Shown here piece by piece: positions 29,823 to 37,391 of a DNA stretch of 38,842 nucleotides. The stretch is from Desulfobacterales bacterium (GTDB lineage Bacteria > Desulfobacterota > Desulfobacteria > Desulfobacterales > JASJAZ01). Position 1 is the first letter of the stretch; the number at the start of each line of letters is the position of its first letter. A program made the position numbers and the translations under genes. The notes beneath the pieces were generated by a model. That model worked only from the letters and a program-made list of their open reading frames with translations. It made no database searches and was not told the origin of the DNA. The stretch covers positions 1 to 38,842 of the forward strand of contig JASJAZ010000067.1 of assembly GCA_030066785.1 (NCBI GenBank), given 5' to 3'.

Positions 29823-30026
29823 ATGGATTGGGAAAATACCTACGCTGATTATGTTAAAAAAGATGGTGTAAAATCCATCCAGGCTTTAGAAAAAGAAACC
29901 GGCAAGCTTATTCTGGCATATCCGACCCCGCCGGTGGCAGCTGATTTAACCCCCGAGCAGATGAAAAAAATACGAAAACTTGAAAAGAAACTCTGTGTGC
30001 GCCTGGTGGCCTATGAAAGCCACTAG
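29823..30026 (+). CDS. Small protein of unknown function, 67 residues
   Basis: The protein is hydrophilic, with one cysteine (KKLCVRL) and a Lys-rich helix near the C-terminus. ATG 29823 has GGAGGTG upstream, a strong ribosome site. A clear stem-loop follows the stop. These signals support a real gene. It has a short LILAYPTPPVAADLTPEQ segment but no recognised family. Confidence 0.7.
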   Translation: MDWENTYADYVKKDGVKSIQALEKETGKLILAYPTPPVAADLTPEQMKKIRKLEKKLCVRLVAYESH

Positions 30027-30053
30027 AGGTCTCAATACATTAAATTGCAACGC

Positions 30054-30077
30054 AAAGCAGGGCCCCGGCCCTGCTTT
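30054..30077 (+). terminator. Stem-loop after the 67-residue protein
   Basis: An 11-bp perfect stem (30054-30064 with 30067-30077) closes on CC. Only a short T-run follows, so it is a moderate terminator. Confidence 0.65.
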
Positions 30078-30247
30078 CACATAGCGGTTTCTGGGTTTTC
30101 GTTCGGAATTAGGCTAAGGAACGATTTCCACCTGATCTTAGCCTGGCTCACTTAGCTAAAAGTGTTCAGTCTACGTGTTTCTGATTGACAGGACCATTTG
30201 AGGGCGCCCGCCCAGTTGCTTTCGCTATAGTTTGATTATGATCGCCG

Positions 30248-30757
30248 TTAAATTTTTTGTTCACCGATGCCACTGTACACCGCCTTGCACATACCCGAGA
30301 CACCGCCCTTTATACCTTCGGGGTTTTTCAAACCCTCTGAACCTCTTAAAACCTTCAGATACCCGCCGGCATCAGCGAGGTTACCCATGGCCGCATCAGT
30401 TTCCGATTCAGGTTCAATTTTAAACAGCCATCCTTGACCGTATGGATCTCGGCCTATCAAAAACGGGTTTTCTTTAACACGGCCGTTGAAAGATATGCTA
30501 CCGCTAACGGGCGCATCGAGATAAGATATTTTGCCGGTAATGGCGAATATCACAGAGTCGCCGGCTTGAATTGCCACGCCATCGGCGACCAACCAATCAA
30601 CACCTTTGATGCCGGCGGACAATACCAGCGCTGGTTCAGATAAGCCGCACACAATCGCGTTGTCTTCTAATTTGGCCCAAACGCCTTGTTTAACCGCATA
30701 TCGTCGATCATCCGGAATATTAACACGCTGCCCTAAGAATTTTTCAATTACTGCCAT
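30248..30757 (-). CDS. GcvH-like lipoyl-domain protein, unusual lysine context
   Basis: The 169-residue protein has the H-protein layout: PVSGSISFNGRV and DPYGQGWLFKIEP match the end of the lipoyl domain of glycine cleavage H protein. K76 in ITGKISYLDAPVSG is near the lipoyl-lysine position, but lies seven residues before the PVSG proline against eight in ordinary GcvH, as I recall it. Lipoylation is therefore uncertain. The tail holds one cysteine (SGMCKAV). ATG 30757 has AAGGAACG upstream. No P-, T- or L-protein gene is near. It follows two seleno-redox genes, so it may carry a sulfur or thiol group, as LbpA-type lipoate proteins do; that is inference. Confidence 0.72.
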   Translation of the reverse strand: MAVIEKFLGQRVNIPDDRRYAVKQGVWAKLEDNAIVCGLSEPALVLSAGIKGVDWLVADGVAIQAGDSVIFAITGKISYLDAPVSGSISFNGRVKENPFLIGRDPYGQGWLFKIEPESETDAAMGNLADAGGYLKVLRGSEGLKNPEGIKGGVSGMCKAVYSGIGEQKI

Positions 30758-30793
30758 TAGCGTTCCTTTCGCAAGTACAAGCAAAGTTTGATT

Positions 30794-31105
30794 CTAAAAC
30801 AGTCGTTTCAGCAAACCTTTTTTTTCAGGTTTCGGTGGCGGTAGCCCCAGTTGACGGCAGACTTCTTCTTCCACTTTGAATTGACTAACATCGGATCCCT
30901 CCACCACCACCTCATCGCCTACCATGACCGCCGGTGCAACGGGAAGATCCAATTCGAAATATTCATCGGTGATGTAATCTGCTTTGGGCTTTGACATGGT
31001 TTCGATTTCTACTTCGTACCGTTGTCCCAACACGGGGATCATTTTTTTAAAATGCTTTCACGGCTTGCCATTGGGTTCGTTGAGGAAAAAGCGTATTTTT
31101 AACAT
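30794..31105 (-). CDS. Thioredoxin/glutaredoxin-like selenoprotein with Sec16
   Basis: ATG 31105, with GGAGGC upstream, opens a 103-residue frame interrupted only by UGA at 31058-31060. The protein begins MLKIRFFLNEPNGKP-Sec16-KHFKKM, a first strand and helix with the selenocysteine in the position of the thioredoxin-fold active site. Later LPVAPAVMVGDEVVVEG gives a cis-Pro-like loop and strands, and the C-terminus is Lys-rich. A small hairpin with the loop about 24-31 nt after the UGA fits a SECIS. A start at 31042 would have no ribosome site and no active site. It lies between the rhodanese-DsbD fusion and the GcvH-like gene. It likely shuttles electrons or selenol/thiol groups in that operon. 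Confidence 0.86.
31019..31038 (-). promoter_or_regulatory. Candidate SECIS hairpin for the 30794-31105 selenoprotein
   Basis: CCG-UG bulge-UUG-GGA-CAACGG (31035-31019) resembles the bulged fdhF SECIS, with its loop 30 nt after the UGA. An alternative UCCC/GGGA hairpin starts at 31038. Confidence 0.55.
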
Positions 31106-31142
31106 GCTAAGCCTCCATTCTAAAAAATTTTATCATAGTAGA

Positions 31143-32873
31143 TTATCTTAGAGTTGCCATAAGGTTCAAGAAATCATCAGGTTTGATGTAATCGATCACA
31201 CGCAGTTCCTTTTTTTCCTGTCCGTTTGGATCTAAAAAAACCACTGTGGGCACACCTTTGACATTAAATTGATGGAGCAGTTCATCATAGCTGCGATCGC
31301 TTTTTTGGGTCAGATCCACCTTGACCATCATGAAATCTTTTTGGGAAAGTTTCACAATATCAGGATGATGAAATGTCACCTCATCCAATTTGCGACACGG
31401 TGCACACCAATTAGCATAAAAATCAATAATCACCGGTTTTTTGTGGTTTGCGGCCGCCATCATCACAGTTTCTGAATAAGGGTGCCACTTGACGCCCGGT
31501 CCTTTCAACAGCTCAGAGCCGCCCCAATAGATGCCCAACACAAGCCAGACAACCCCCACCATTACTTTAATCCAGGTGAAGGCACGAAACAACGCTTGGG
31601 TGCGGTCAAACCACCCCAGGTGTAGGCCGGCGCCAATCGCAATGGCGGCTAGCAGGTAATTCTGGAAACCGGGCGCTAGCAGCGATCGAATAAAATAGGC
31701 CGCCATGCCCAACAGAATCCAGCTCATTAATCGCCGGACCCAGAGCATCCATTCGCCGGAAGATGGCAACTTGTTTAATTGGCCTGAAAATAAGGCCAGT
31801 AGGAAAAGCGGAAAACCCAAACCGAGGCTGAGCGTAAAAAACACACCGAAACCGATCAGGGGATCACCCAGTGACGCCACCCACGTCAGCAATCCGATGA
31901 TAAAAGGCCCGATACAGGGTGCGGCCACAACCCCAAGGGTAATGCCCATGAAAAATGATCCGAAAAAACCGGTGTAGGATTTCGAAGCTGCCTGGGTCAG
32001 CCAAAAGGGTAGTTTTATTTCCCAGATGCCAAAGAGGCTGGATGCAAAAATAATTAATACGCCGGCTATTCCCGCCAGCACCAACGGATTTTGCAGCATG
32101 GCGCCCATCAGGTTGCCGGTCAGCGCAGCAAACACCCCCAGCAGGGAGTTGGTTAACACCAGTCCACCGATATAGCAGACGCCATGTCTGACGACATCGC
32201 CTTTGCCGCGGCCACTGCGGCCGCCAAAGTAGGAAACCGTGATGGGAATCAACGGATAAATACAGGGGGTCAGGTTTAATGCCAGTCCGCCGGCAAAGAT
32301 TCCTAAAAGCGTCCAAAGCAGCGCCCAACCGTGCAATGGTCTGCTGGAAGAGGTTGGGAAAGACGATCTGGATACTGGTGGTTGGCTTTTAGAGACCGGT
32401 AGACCTTGTTCAAGCCATTCCGGATAGCCGTGGGGATGCCGGTAAACCTTTGTGTAGCCAAGTTGAACGGCTACCCGAGCCGCCGAGTCGCTACGGACTC
32501 ACGCTAGGCCGGCTCAGTAAAAAACAGTGGGGCGCTGTTTATCTGGGCCCAGGATTTCTTTGAGGGCTGCCCGTTTGCGCCAGCGGTCTAACCAGGTTGG
32601 TTCGATTGGAAAATTGATCGCATCCTTTATATGACCTGTACGAAACTCCCATTCCTGGCGGGTATCAACGATAACTGCATTTTTTGATGGTTGCTGGTAT
32701 AAATCCCAAAACTGATCGGTGTTGATAATATGATAGCCGCCGTTTTGGGCTTCCCGTAAAACATCATCCCAGGTGGCACTGGGGGTTTCTGTCTGACGAT
32801 TTTCAAACCATAATACACCGCAAGTAATGACAACCGCCAGGACAGGCATCAATATGGCACGAAATAGTTTCAT
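31143..32873 (-). CDS. Rhodanese-DsbD-thioredoxin fusion selenoprotein with two Sec (Sec120, Sec125)
   Basis: One frame of 576 residues runs from ATG 32873 to the TAA at 31143, crossing UGA at 32514-32516 and 32499-32501. Residues 1-25 are a signal or membrane anchor. About 35-165 is a rhodanese domain with VIVDTRQEWEFRTGHI, then VFY-Sec120-AGLA-Sec125-VRSDSAARVAVQLGY and HPHGYPEW. Related rhodaneses carry Cys at both Sec positions. From 180 follows a DsbD-type membrane domain with C204 (LTPCIYP) and C320 (AAPCIGP), then a thioredoxin domain with W-C490-x2-C493. The continuous homology past both UGAs rules out a simple stop. It would pass reducing power across the membrane to a sulfur-transfer domain outside. 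Orientation is inferred. A weak ribosome site precedes the start. Confidence 0.92.
32468..32482 (-). promoter_or_regulatory. Candidate SECIS for the second UGA of the rhodanese-DsbD gene
   Basis: CGGCU-CGGGU-AGCCG, five pairs, with G at loop position two. The loop lies 21 nt after UGA 32499-32501. Confidence 0.6.
32485..32500 (-). promoter_or_regulatory. Candidate SECIS for the first UGA of the rhodanese-DsbD gene
   Basis: GAGUC-CGUAGC-GACUC, five pairs, with G at loop position two. The loop lies 18 nt after UGA 32514-32516, the same distance as in fdhF. The hairpin includes two bases of the second UGA. Confidence 0.6.
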
Positions 32874-33327
32874 ATGATGGATGGCAGGGCGAACGTTTTA
32901 CGTTACAGATAGCTAAAATGCGGTGCTTTTGGTGATAAATGGCCTGGGGAAAATTATCTGCAACGATTCACGGTTATAGATAATAATGATAAAAGAATAA
33001 TTTTAAATTTAAATAATCTATAGCCGTCTCCTACCGATCTTGCAAGATTTTATTGTCTTGCCGTACAGGTTGTTTCCAGGGGAAGAGCTGTGTTATCGGG
33101 ACTGTTGGTTTTAAACTTGTGTTCAATTTCAAGGACCGGCTCAGCTGAAAATGGCACAAACTGACGCTTATTTTAGATACTTGCTAATGCGCTTCGGAAA
33201 CGATAAAAACCAATAGTAAAGTTTATTACAGTATTGGCGGTCGATCTTTTTGAAATAAATGTTGCCAACTTCTGAATGGTTCATTCCTTTTTAAGTTACT
33301 CATATTGATCTTGATAAGGAGGTTCAC
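32874..33327. other. Intergenic region, 454 bp
   Basis: A divergent gap between the rhodanese-DsbD gene and the DUF169 gene. It is AT-rich and holds the inverted repeat at 32971-33026. No tRNA, ORF with ribosome site or riboswitch fold was recognised. Confidence 0.6.
32971..33026. repeat. Imperfect inverted repeat in the divergent gap
   Basis: CGGTTATAGATAAT (32971-32984) pairs with ATAATCTATAGCCG (33013-33026), with one mismatch and one wobble, across a 28-bp AT-rich centre. It is possibly a regulatory site for the rhodanese-DsbD operon or the DUF169 gene. Confidence 0.45.
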
Positions 33328-34155
33328 ATGCAAGCGCTGGATGCACTGCCCCAATTTTTAGATATATTAGGGCTTAAAGAAGAACCCATGGGCATTTTTT
33401 ATACCGATACGAAACCGGCGGATGGTTTTGCACCTAAACCCAACGATTTGCCGACGCGTGAAAAGGAACAGAAAAATGCAATCGATTGGCAGGCTATATT
33501 TGGAAATTTTTCATGTGCGATGGGCCATATTTGGCGTGCACGCAAAAAAAAGACGGCGGCCTATTTCTCCGCCGAACAATTCGGTTGCCCGGGTGGCGCT
33601 TTCTGGCTGGGGTTTAACAAACCCCAGGCCGAAACAATTATTAATTATGTTTCCACCGGAATCCCCAATTGGACCGAAGGTGAATTTTACTGTGACTCAC
33701 CGGATGAGCTGCGCCGTATTTTTGAGTATGTTGATCCCCGACCGGCCCCCCACAAATATTGTGTCGTCAAACCGGTAAGCCAATTTGCAGAAACCGAGAT
33801 TCCGGAACTGGTTGCCTTTTTTACAAGGCCGGAAGCCTTGGCAGGGTTGCACCAGCTGGCGGCATTTGTTACCAATGATCCCGAGGTGGTGGCATCACCC
33901 TGGGGTGCGGCTTGCGGAAACTTGGTGGTGTGGCCGTTGCATTATCTTTCCGTAAACCAACACAAAGCTGTCATTGGCGGTTGGGACCCTTCGGCCCGCA
34001 AGTTTTTTAAGACCGACGAGCTTTCCTTCACCGTACCCTACCAGATGTTTGCCGACATGCTGAATCGATTTGATGGTTCTTTTCTAAAGACCAAGACATG
34101 GTCAACCGTACAAAAAAAGATCGCCCGCAGTAACCAAACCTGGGGTGAGGATTGA
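33328..34155 (+). CDS. DUF169 protein
   Basis: The 275-residue protein fits DUF169: an N-terminal LDILGLKEEPMGIFYTD, a central NFSCAMGHIWRARK and FGCPGGAFWLGF, and later PWGAACGNLVVWPL. These cysteines are typical of the family and may bind a metal or cofactor. No function is established. ATG 33328 has AAGGAGG upstream. It is monocistronic and divergent from the rhodanese-DsbD operon. DUF169 genes are common in anaerobes. Confidence 0.85.
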   Translation: MQALDALPQFLDILGLKEEPMGIFYTDTKPADGFAPKPNDLPTREKEQKNAIDWQAIFGNFSCAMGHIWRARKKKTAAYFSAEQFGCPGGAFWLGFNKPQAETIINYVSTGIPNWTEGEFYCDSPDELRRIFEYVDPRPAPHKYCVVKPVSQFAETEIPELVAFFTRPEALAGLHQLAAFVTNDPEVVASPWGAACGNLVVWPLHYLSVNQHKAVIGGWDPSARKFFKTDELSFTVPYQMFADMLNRFDGSFLKTKTWSTVQKKIARSNQTWGED

Positions 34156-37046: not shown

Positions 37047-37391
37047 ATGCGATCATTTATCCGCCTCATGAAAGCCTGTTCCGATCCGAATCGGGTTAAA
37101 ATCATAAAGCTCCTGCAGCACAAGACCATGTGTGTGTGTGAGCTGCAGGGGGCCTTAGGCGTTGCCCAACCAACAGTTTCCAAGCACCTAAAAATATTGG
37201 AAGAAGCTGGGGTCGTTGAATCCATTAAAGACGGTCTTTGGGTTAATTATTATCTAGCCGATGGCAGCGGCAGTCCCTATGTGGCCAATCTGATCGGCAA
37301 TTTGAAGCATTGGCTCAATGATGATCCCGAGGTGCTTGAATTAACCAACAAGATTCCGTTTCTGGACCGTGAAACGTTGTGTCGTAAATGA
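37047..37391 (+). CDS. ArsR-family metal- or metalloid-responsive repressor
   Basis: The 114-residue winged-helix protein has C29-V-C31 in the recognition-site position of As(III)/Sb(III) or metal sensing (MCVCELQ), then AQPTVSKHLKILEEAGVV as DNA-binding helix. C11 near the N-terminus may be a third ligand. ATG 37047 has AGGAA and an AT repeat upstream. It precedes the permease gene by 75 bp and probably represses it. Confidence 0.9.
   Translation: MRSFIRLMKACSDPNRVKIIKLLQHKTMCVCELQGALGVAQPTVSKHLKILEEAGVVESIKDGLWVNYYLADGSGSPYVANLIGNLKHWLNDDPEVLELTNKIPFLDRETLCRK

What the first reader, a model, noticed from the sequence alone, without database searches (positions are those of the whole stretch)
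31143..32873. Rhodanese-DsbD fusion with two selenocysteines in its rhodanese active site
Two in-frame UGA codons lie five codons apart exactly where related rhodaneses have cysteines (FY-U-AGLA-U-VRSD). The downstream frame continues the rhodanese fold (AARVAVQLGY, HGYPEW) and then a full DsbD and thioredoxin domain. Each UGA has its own short hairpin, with loop at 18 and 21 nt. A membrane selenium sulfurtransferase fed by DsbD-type reductant would be new as far as I know.
Basis: partly seen in the sequence, partly recalled or inferred. Interest (0 to 1): 0.95.

Follow-up and report, generated by a model that had tools for sequence, protein, structure and literature searches.

The report
Double-selenocysteine rhodanese–DsbD protein TsoB
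This gene encodes a membrane protein that joins a rhodanese domain to a DsbD-type electron relay and has two UGA codons in its active site that are predicted to be read as selenocysteine; it belongs to a family already catalogued as TsoB, and it would likely pass electrons from inside the cell to a sulfur- or selenium-handling site outside the inner membrane.

Summary
The frame 32873-31143 has exactly two UGAs, at residues 120 and 125. It is NCBIfam NF045694 "rhodanese/DsbD fusion-like selenoprotein TsoB" (945.5 bits, cut-off 805). A 2026 review lists the family (UxxxxU) and credits Haft & Tolstoy 2025, so it is already known. The next gene is TsoC, also with one UGA.
New support: 59 of 59 over-cut-off copies in the order carry both UGAs and no other stop. 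Two wobble-to-wobble pairs in hairpin 2 have the highest mutual information of 5,795 third-position pairs. Cys/Cys full-length homologues exist, one in a genome that also has a Sec/Sec copy. The four DsbD relay cysteines are invariant (58 of 58).
Gaps: no tRNA-Sec in this 93%-complete assembly, though SelA and SelB are there and 7 of 7 tested relatives have it. Biochemistry is untested. I favour a trans-membrane sulfane-sulfur reductase in which the Sec pair replaces DsbD's alpha-domain Cys pair.

The parts
31143..32873 (-). tsoB: rhodanese–DsbD fusion, 576 residues, two in-frame UGA (U120, U125), stop TAA
   Evidence: translate with TGA=U; NF045694 945.5 bits against cut-off 805
32514..32516 (-). 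UGA1 (residue 120), first residue of the active-site loop after the rhodanese strand 116-119
32499..32501 (-). UGA2 (residue 125)
32485..32500 (-). hairpin 1 (SECIS candidate for UGA1): 5 bp, 6-nt loop CGUAGC, loop 18 nt after UGA1; its 5' arm contains the GA of UGA2
   Evidence: RNAalifold on 58 sequences, pair counts
32467..32483 (-). hairpin 2 (SECIS candidate for UGA2): 6 bp, loop CGGGU, loop 21 nt after UGA2; two compensatory wobble pairs
32802..32870 (-). N-terminal helix (residues 2-24), probable membrane anchor that would put the rhodanese in the periplasm
   Evidence: AlphaFold2 model; location inferred
32409..32693 (-). rhodanese domain (residues 61-155)
   Evidence: PF00581 54.7 bits; fold matches to rhodaneses, incl. 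Wolinella polysulfide-sulfur transferase 1qxn
31683..32318 (-). DsbD_TM / CcdA-like membrane domain (residues 186-397) with C204 and C320
   Evidence: PF02683 128.8 bits; Cys 58 of 58
31227..31487 (-). C-terminal thioredoxin (DsbD gamma-like, residues 463-549), WCAPC = C490/C493
   Evidence: PF13899 61.6 bits; top fold hits are DsbD gamma; Cys 58 of 58
30794..31105 (-). tsoC: small thioredoxin-like selenoprotein candidate, motif NEPNGKPU
   Evidence: NF045708 144 bits against cut-off 45; residue-16 codon TGA in 53 of the 53 homologues found in 80 named loci; model is a thioredoxin-like fold
31058..31060 (-). in-frame UGA of tsoC (residue 16)
30248..30784 (-). GcvH-related protein, third gene of the run
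   Evidence: NF045810 252.2 bits against cut-off 150

Best explanation
The locus encodes TsoB and TsoC, members of catalogued selenoprotein families; the two TsoB UGAs are predicted to be decoded as selenocysteine, each with its own hairpin, and the protein likely works as a membrane electron relay that reduces sulfane sulfur bound at a periplasmic Sec-X4-Sec rhodanese site. Steps. (1) Shown in sequence: both UGAs, the rhodanese, the DsbD membrane core and the thioredoxin domain lie in one conserved frame. (2) Shown by comparison: RNA constraint on the hairpins, strongest for hairpin 2. (3) Inferred: the ribosome reads UGA1 with hairpin 1, which it unfolds in moving on; hairpin 2 then serves UGA2, which itself lies inside the arm of hairpin 1. 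(4) Inferred from DsbD: cytosolic thiol electrons pass through C204/C320 to C490/C493. (5) Inferred: the thioredoxin domain reduces the Sec pair, which sits where DsbD has its alpha-domain Cys pair. (6) Inferred: U120 takes a sulfur (or selenium) atom from a polysulfide-like donor, U125 resolves it, a chalcogenide is released and a diselenide is left to be re-reduced.
For: Family: NF045694 and NF045708 well over cut-off. Sec: 59 of 59 over-cut-off copies in 389 genomes of the order have exactly two TGA; 22 of 23 over-cut-off copies in 395 genomes of the phylum have two TGA and the 23rd is a Cys/Cys copy (three of the matching genomes are shared); 72 of 80 named-genome loci read TGA/TGA, 7 give no alignment over the site, 1 (L235) is an ordinary DsbD (this set overlaps the others). 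RNA: the two hairpins are the RNAalifold answer; 99.4% of cells paired, 25 cells changed on both sides against 7.4 in shuffles (0 of 500), and 22-60% paired when slid; codon pairs +11/+15 and +12/+14 rank 1st and 2nd of 5,795 third-position pairs by mutual information and are the only two with at least 90% Watson-Crick and at least 5 double changes. They fit the loop, stem and spacing limits of the bSECIS model in PMC13188914. SelA and SelB in the genome. Relay: C204, C320, C490, C493 58 of 58, C233 54 of 58. Alpha-domain replacement: four DsbD relatives among the 80 loci (L234-L237) have Pfam DsbD_N over cut-off and all four carry CX4C there, the spacing of TsoB's UX4U. Sulfur link: ArsR–rhodanese fusions (AYCRGPYC) lie upstream, within 9 kb, in 16 of 58 loci; fold match to polysulfide-sulfur transferase.
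Against: No tRNA-Sec in this assembly: best Rfam match 45.4 bits, under the 47-bit threshold and a tRNA-Ser by ARAGORN (150 of 499 candidates scored); a recalled selC pattern gave one match that ARAGORN does not call a tRNA, although the same pattern and ARAGORN both find the gene in 7 of 7 related TsoB genomes (73-77 bits); none on the selA or selB contigs. An assembly gap is likely but not shown. SelD was not searched. Hairpin 1 has no double-sided change; neither hairpin is more stable than shuffles; two measures do not favour the structure (pairs with a double change 2 against 1.7 in shuffles, 367 of 500 reach it; further pair types 7 against 7.7), and its shuffles do not keep relatedness. 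TsoA is absent, so the named three-selenoprotein operon is incomplete here, as in 34 of 56 TsoB genomes counting this one. No substrate evidence: the neighbours also fit metal, arsenic or selenium handling. The model is only moderately confident as a whole (pLDDT 75.3, pTM 0.49), so domain contacts are not known.
Confidence: 0.5

Rival explanations
1. Same double selenoprotein, but its job is general periplasmic thiol/disulfide reduction (a DsbD/ScsB-like reductase); the rhodanese fold serves only as a scaffold for the Sec pair.
For: The whole DsbD relay is conserved and the Sec pair has the CX4C spacing of the alpha domain in four of four DsbD relatives with that domain.
Against: The rhodanese core around the loop (D70, E76, G80, H81, R127, S128) is kept in at least 57 of 58, and ArsR–rhodanese fusions occur upstream in 16 of 58 loci.
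Confidence: 0.25
2. Same double selenoprotein, but in metal, arsenic or selenium-oxyanion handling: TsoB/TsoC would bind or reduce a metal(loid) under ArsR/SmtB control.
For: ArsR-type regulators upstream in some loci; NCBI names a TsoR 'ArsR/SmtB-type metalloregulator'. TsoC's model also matches the arsenic chaperone ArsD. Methyltransferase and VTT-type membrane genes lie nearby in some loci (names by my reading).
Against: By a crude motif test, 0 of 21 members of the fusion cluster and only 1 of 16 of the ArsR cluster have CxC[DEQ]L, and that one is the window's own ArsR about 4 kb away on the other strand. ArsD matches are no better than thioredoxin matches.
Confidence: 0.2
3. The UGAs are true stops: the locus is a pseudogene or two separate genes (rhodanese, DsbD).
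For: No tRNA-Sec found in this assembly; 114 of 120 listed database relatives cover at most 77% of the protein, though gene callers that stop at UGA would give just that.
Against: 59 of 59 copies keep both UGAs and the open frame; in the 14 closest pairs dN is below dS in both regions after the UGAs; Cys/Cys full-length copies exist; covariation.
Confidence: 0.02
4. UGA is read as another amino acid throughout this organism (altered code).
For: None found.
Against: SelA and SelB are present; a neighbouring gene (33328-34155 +, DUF169) ends at TGA (sequence).
Confidence: 0.01

Closest known systems
TsoB, NCBIfam NF045694 (rhodanese/DsbD fusion-like selenoprotein; Haft & Tolstoy 2025, seen only through review PMC13188914)
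   Same: Full-length match, both Sec positions (UxxxxU), TsoC neighbour
   Different: TsoA not found in this genome; a GcvH-related gene is third in the run
DsbD (thiol:disulfide interchange protein)
   Same: Membrane core with the two relay cysteines, C-terminal CxxC thioredoxin
   Different: Alpha domain replaced by a Sec-rhodanese; fails the NCBIfam DsbD cut-off (226 against 330)
Rhodaneses without a DsbD part, with YCX4CxRS (loci L023, L024, L025, L028)
   Same: Same loop with Cys at both Sec positions
   Different: No DsbD part, no UGA in the loop
NF041203 rhodanese-related (seleno)protein and rhodanese forms 1-4 of the review table
   Same: Rhodanese with a Sec
   Different: One Sec with other motifs (UxxS, UxxG, CxU); TsoB scores 30.8 against a cut-off of 115
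Polysulfide-sulfur transferase of Wolinella succinogenes (1qxn)
   Same: Rhodanese-like fold
   Different: Separate protein; its sulfur-carrier role is recalled, not tested here

Membership tests
TsoB (NF045694) | Full-length HMM match over curated cut-off | tested here: met
   945.5 against 805 bits
TsoB (NF045694) | Two UGA codons spaced UxxxxU in the rhodanese loop | tested here: met
   U120, U125; motif given in PMC13188914
TsoB (NF045694) | Selenocysteine actually inserted | not testable with these tools
   needs mass spectrometry or 75Se
Tso operon (three selenoproteins) | TsoC next to TsoB | tested here: met
   NF045708 144 bits; 37 nt between the genes by coordinates
Tso operon (three selenoproteins) | TsoA present | tested here: not met
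   no match in this genome; the same search finds it in 22 of 56 TsoB genomes, 20 over cut-off
Selenoprotein-encoding genome | SelA and SelB | tested here: met
   617.8 bits, 373.9 bits, both over cut-off
Selenoprotein-encoding genome | tRNA-Sec | tested here: inconclusive
   none over 47 bits and no pattern match that is a tRNA; both methods are positive in 7 of 7 related genomes; assembly 92.86% complete
Selenoprotein-encoding genome | SelD | not tested
   no genome search left
bSECIS (model in PMC13188914) | Loop 3-9 nt, stem 4-16 bp, G in first two loop positions, spacing 16-37 nt | tested here: met
   hairpins 1 and 2: loops 6 and 5 nt, stems 5 and 6 bp, G second in 58 of 58, spacing 18 and 21
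bSECIS (model in PMC13188914) | MFE at or below -7.5 kcal/mol | tested here: inconclusive
   42-nt stretches from each UGA pass in 58 of 58; the bare hairpins of the window give -6.3 and -8.2, and bare hairpin 1 ranges from -6.4 to -0.7 over the 58
Rhodanese | PF00581 over cut-off, Cys/Sec at the start of the active-site loop | tested here: met
   54.7 against 22.2 bits; strand 116-119, loop 120-126, helix 127-137
Rhodanese | Sulfur transfer activity | not testable with these tools
   bench assay needed
DsbD proper | NCBIfam DsbD cut-off, alpha domain | tested here: not met
   226 against 330 bits; no DsbD_N match, N-terminal domain is rhodanese
DsbD-like relay | Two membrane Cys and a gamma CxxC | tested here: met
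   C204, C320, C490, C493 in 58 of 58

The most novel reading that the evidence does not exclude
A membrane protein that drives a periplasmic diselenide rhodanese with cytosolic electrons: a one-chain trans-membrane sulfane-sulfur (or selenium) reductase, written with two interlocked SECIS hairpins in which the second Sec codon forms part of the arm of the first codon's SECIS, so that the two insertions must take turns.
Probability: 0.4. Interest if true: 0.75.

Novelty: already known. Interest (0 to 1): 0.42.

Why it matters
As a gene family it is already catalogued. What remains open is its chemistry: two predicted selenocysteines five residues apart sit at the end of a complete trans-membrane thiol relay, with the spacing of the cysteine pair that ordinary DsbD relatives have in their alpha domain. 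If the mechanism holds, relatives of sulfate-reducing bacteria would be using selenium to send reducing power out to sulfur compounds in the periplasm. The covariation data also give a clean test case for how neighbouring Sec codons are decoded.

Tried and rejected
Pseudogene or separate genes: rejected by conservation, dN below dS after the UGAs and Cys copies. Altered code: rejected (SelA, SelB; a TGA-terminated neighbour). Loss of the N-terminal half in relatives: three short matches were checked; two run into a contig end (L120, L122) and one into a run of N (L121), so none of the three shows a real loss. TsoY as a partner: no match in 56 genomes, with no positive control, so nothing is concluded. 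TsoX was not searched. tRNA-Sec by a recalled pattern: one match, on a contig where ARAGORN finds no tRNA. Rfam scan of 30000-34000: only sub-threshold hits. Thermodynamic stability as SECIS evidence: not better than shuffles, dropped as an argument. TsoC hairpin: -5.8 kcal/mol, no better than shuffles; not claimed. The founding paper (PMC12013261) is not held, nor is PMC1976440. Search inside the deep-Sep paper (PMC12013277) finds neither rhodanese nor TsoB. A paper listed for 'TsoY' (PMC10536192) only cites an author named Tsoy.

Full report
Observation. The gene is on the minus strand, 32873 to 31143. Reading TGA as Sec gives 576 residues with exactly two U, at 120 and 125, and a TAA stop. 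Pfam finds a rhodanese (54.7 bits), a DsbD membrane domain (128.8 bits) and thioredoxin families (best 61.6 bits) in that order.

Already catalogued. NCBIfam names it: NF045694 seleno_TsoB, 945.5 bits against a cut-off of 805, residues 6-575. The next gene, 31105-30794, is NF045708 seleno_TsoC, 144 bits against 45. Review PMC13188914 (passages seen; its SECIS section read) lists TsoB with motif UxxxxU and two Sec, describes the 'Tso (three selenoprotein operon)', and credits Haft & Tolstoy 2025 (mSystems 10:e0141724), which the library does not hold, so I have not seen it. Five literature searches showed no other paper on TsoB in the listings returned; the listings are partly capped (20 of 41, 5 of 19,073, 15 of 31) and cover only the open-licence library.

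Conservation of the UGAs. In 389 genomes of the order, 56 have an over-cut-off TsoB, 59 copies in all, and 59 of 59 have two TGA and no other stop inside the match. I fetched 58 of these 59 (one of the two copies of G283 was not fetched) plus three partial copies, which I dropped because they are cut by a contig end or an N run. All 58 read TGA at both places. In 395 genomes of the phylum (three matching genomes shared with the first set), 23 over-cut-off copies were listed: 22 with two TGA and one, in G656, with none. That one reads FYCAGPDCVRSD with TGC and TGT, and the same genome also carries a Sec/Sec copy. In the stretch printed it is the same as P0005 of the protein search. That search found 6,192 relatives at E <= 1e-20 and listed 120. 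Six of the 120 cover at least 97% of the query: four have Cys at both positions, one (P0006) has Gly and Arg, and one (P0038) lacks the loop. The other 114, the window's own 397-residue piece among them, cover at most 77%, as expected of gene calls that begin after UGA2. Among 80 loci of named genomes, 72 read TGA/TGA, 7 have no alignment over the site, and 1 (L235) aligns there without UGA. Four of those eight (L234-L237) are ordinary DsbDs with Pfam DsbD_N over cut-off, two (L230, L233) have the membrane and thioredoxin parts but no N-terminal domain match, one (L231) runs into a contig end, and L238 was not settled. These contigs overlap the unnamed set, so they add names rather than independent counts: mostly deltaproteobacterial (Desulfo-) records, with TGA/TGA copies also in records titled Nitrospirae (L195), Gemmatimonadetes (L218) and Thermodesulfovibrionales (L223).

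RNA evidence. RNAalifold on the 58-sequence alignment A1 predicts exactly two hairpins, columns 23-38 and 40-56. With that structure 99.4% of cells pair; 25 cells have changed on both sides, against 7.4 expected from shuffles (0 of 500 reach it), while sliding the partner by 1-3 columns drops pairing to 22-60%. Two other measures of the same call do not favour the structure: pairs with a double change 2 against 1.7 (367 of 500 shuffles reach it), further pair types 7 against 7.7 (500 of 500). The double changes are all in hairpin 2 and both pairs join two third codon positions: codons +12/+14 are C-G in 50 and T-A in 8 of 58; codons +11/+15 are G-C 36, A-T 18, G-T 3 and C-T 1. As a control that shares the relatedness of the sequences, I tested 5,795 third-position pairs 2-12 codons apart over the codon alignment: these two rank 1st and 2nd by mutual information and are the only two with at least 90% Watson-Crick pairs and at least five double changes (with G-U allowed at 95%, a third pair, +14/+20, passes, but its mutual information is 0.03). 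The ten-codon stretch starting at UGA2 has the lowest third-base entropy in the gene, 0.67 bits against a median of 1.48. Hairpin 1 shows only conservation and one-sided changes. Neither hairpin folds better than shuffled sequence in the window. The Cys copy in G656 keeps hairpin 2's stem but has C in place of the invariant loop G at column 49 (my reading of the DNA); one example, so only suggestive.

A spatial oddity. The 5' arm of hairpin 1 contains the GA of UGA2. If both hairpins act, they must act in turn: hairpin 1 for UGA1, then hairpin 2 once the ribosome has opened hairpin 1. This is inference.

Machinery. SelA and SelB are present over cut-off. tRNA-Sec was not found: the best Rfam match (45.4 bits, threshold 47) is a tRNA-Ser, a recalled pattern gave one match that is not a tRNA, and the selA and selB contigs hold none. 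In 7 of 7 related TsoB genomes tRNA-Sec scores 73-77 bits, ARAGORN calls it tRNA-SeC and the same pattern matches it, so the methods work. The assembly has 278 contigs and 92.86% completeness, so a gap is the likely reason. SelD was not searched.

Anatomy and mechanism. Across 58 copies U120, U125, C204, C320, C490 and C493 are invariant and C233 is kept in 54. C204 and C320 sit in LTPC and APC contexts of the DsbD membrane core, and C490/C493 in a WCxPC thioredoxin motif whose model best matches DsbD gamma structures. Of the four DsbD relatives with an alpha domain (L234-L237), four carry a CX4C pair in it, the same spacing as UX4U. TsoB therefore looks like a DsbD whose alpha domain has been exchanged for a rhodanese. 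By analogy with DsbD (electron path recalled, not tested) electrons would run cytosol, C204/C320, C490/C493, Sec pair. The rhodanese fold, a match to the polysulfide-sulfur transferase of Wolinella, and ArsR–rhodanese fusions with AYCRGPYC upstream (within 9 kb) in 16 of 58 loci make a sulfane-sulfur substrate the best guess. I put the Sec reading at about 0.97 and the sulfane-sulfur reductase reading at about 0.5.

Neighbourhood. TsoC lies within 1.5 kb downstream on the same strand in 40 of 58 loci (55 have at least 350 nt downstream), and its UGA is kept in 53 of the 53 homologues found in the 80 named loci. Its model is a thioredoxin-like fold with the Sec just before the first helix; no Foldseek match reaches E 0.001. 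TsoA is found in 22 of 56 TsoB genomes, 20 over cut-off, and lies within 1.5 kb upstream in 19 of 58 loci; it was not found here. The window has tsoB, tsoC and a GcvH-related gene (NF045810, 252.2 bits) in a row.

Verdict. A correct and sharp observation of a known family. Novelty is in detail only: strong covariation support for the second hairpin, interlocked hairpins, a Cys/Cys copy in the same genome as a Sec/Sec copy, the shared X4 spacing with DsbD's alpha domain, and a TsoA-less form of the operon. Whether any of these is in Haft & Tolstoy 2025 I could not check.

Noticed in passing
L136 and L138, 1501-1932 (+): TsoA (LULAEC) ends in a winged-helix match in L138 (PF13412, 24.3 bits against 21.9; no Pfam match in L136), so it might be a Sec-based redox-sensing DNA-binding protein.
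   Followed up: partly
L269 (G656:C128) and L270 (G656:C82): One genome carries a Cys/Cys TsoB with no TsoC match in the 17 kb fetched around it, and a Sec/Sec TsoB followed by two TsoC homologues (66% and 43% identical to the window's), both with a UGA at the TsoC position.
   Followed up: partly
window 37047-37391 (+): ArsR-type regulator with CVCEL, the arsenic-type motif (recalled); 44.2 bits to TsoR NF045707, under its cut-off of 115. Probably unrelated to tsoB.
   Followed up: partly
window 30248-30784 (-): GcvH-related protein (NF045810) third in the run; whether it keeps the lipoyl lysine is unclear (GKISYLDAP). Matches to it occur in 10 of 58 loci, this one included.
   Followed up: partly
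P0006: Full-length TsoB homologue reading FYGHGLARVRSD: Gly and Arg where Sec is expected; each could be one base from TGA (its DNA was not seen). Inactive copy or sequencing error not settled.
   Followed up: no
upstream of tsoB in 16 of 58 loci, e.g. L093: ArsR–rhodanese fusion regulators with AYCRGPYC, the same CX4C loop as the Cys relatives of TsoB's rhodanese.
   Followed up: partly
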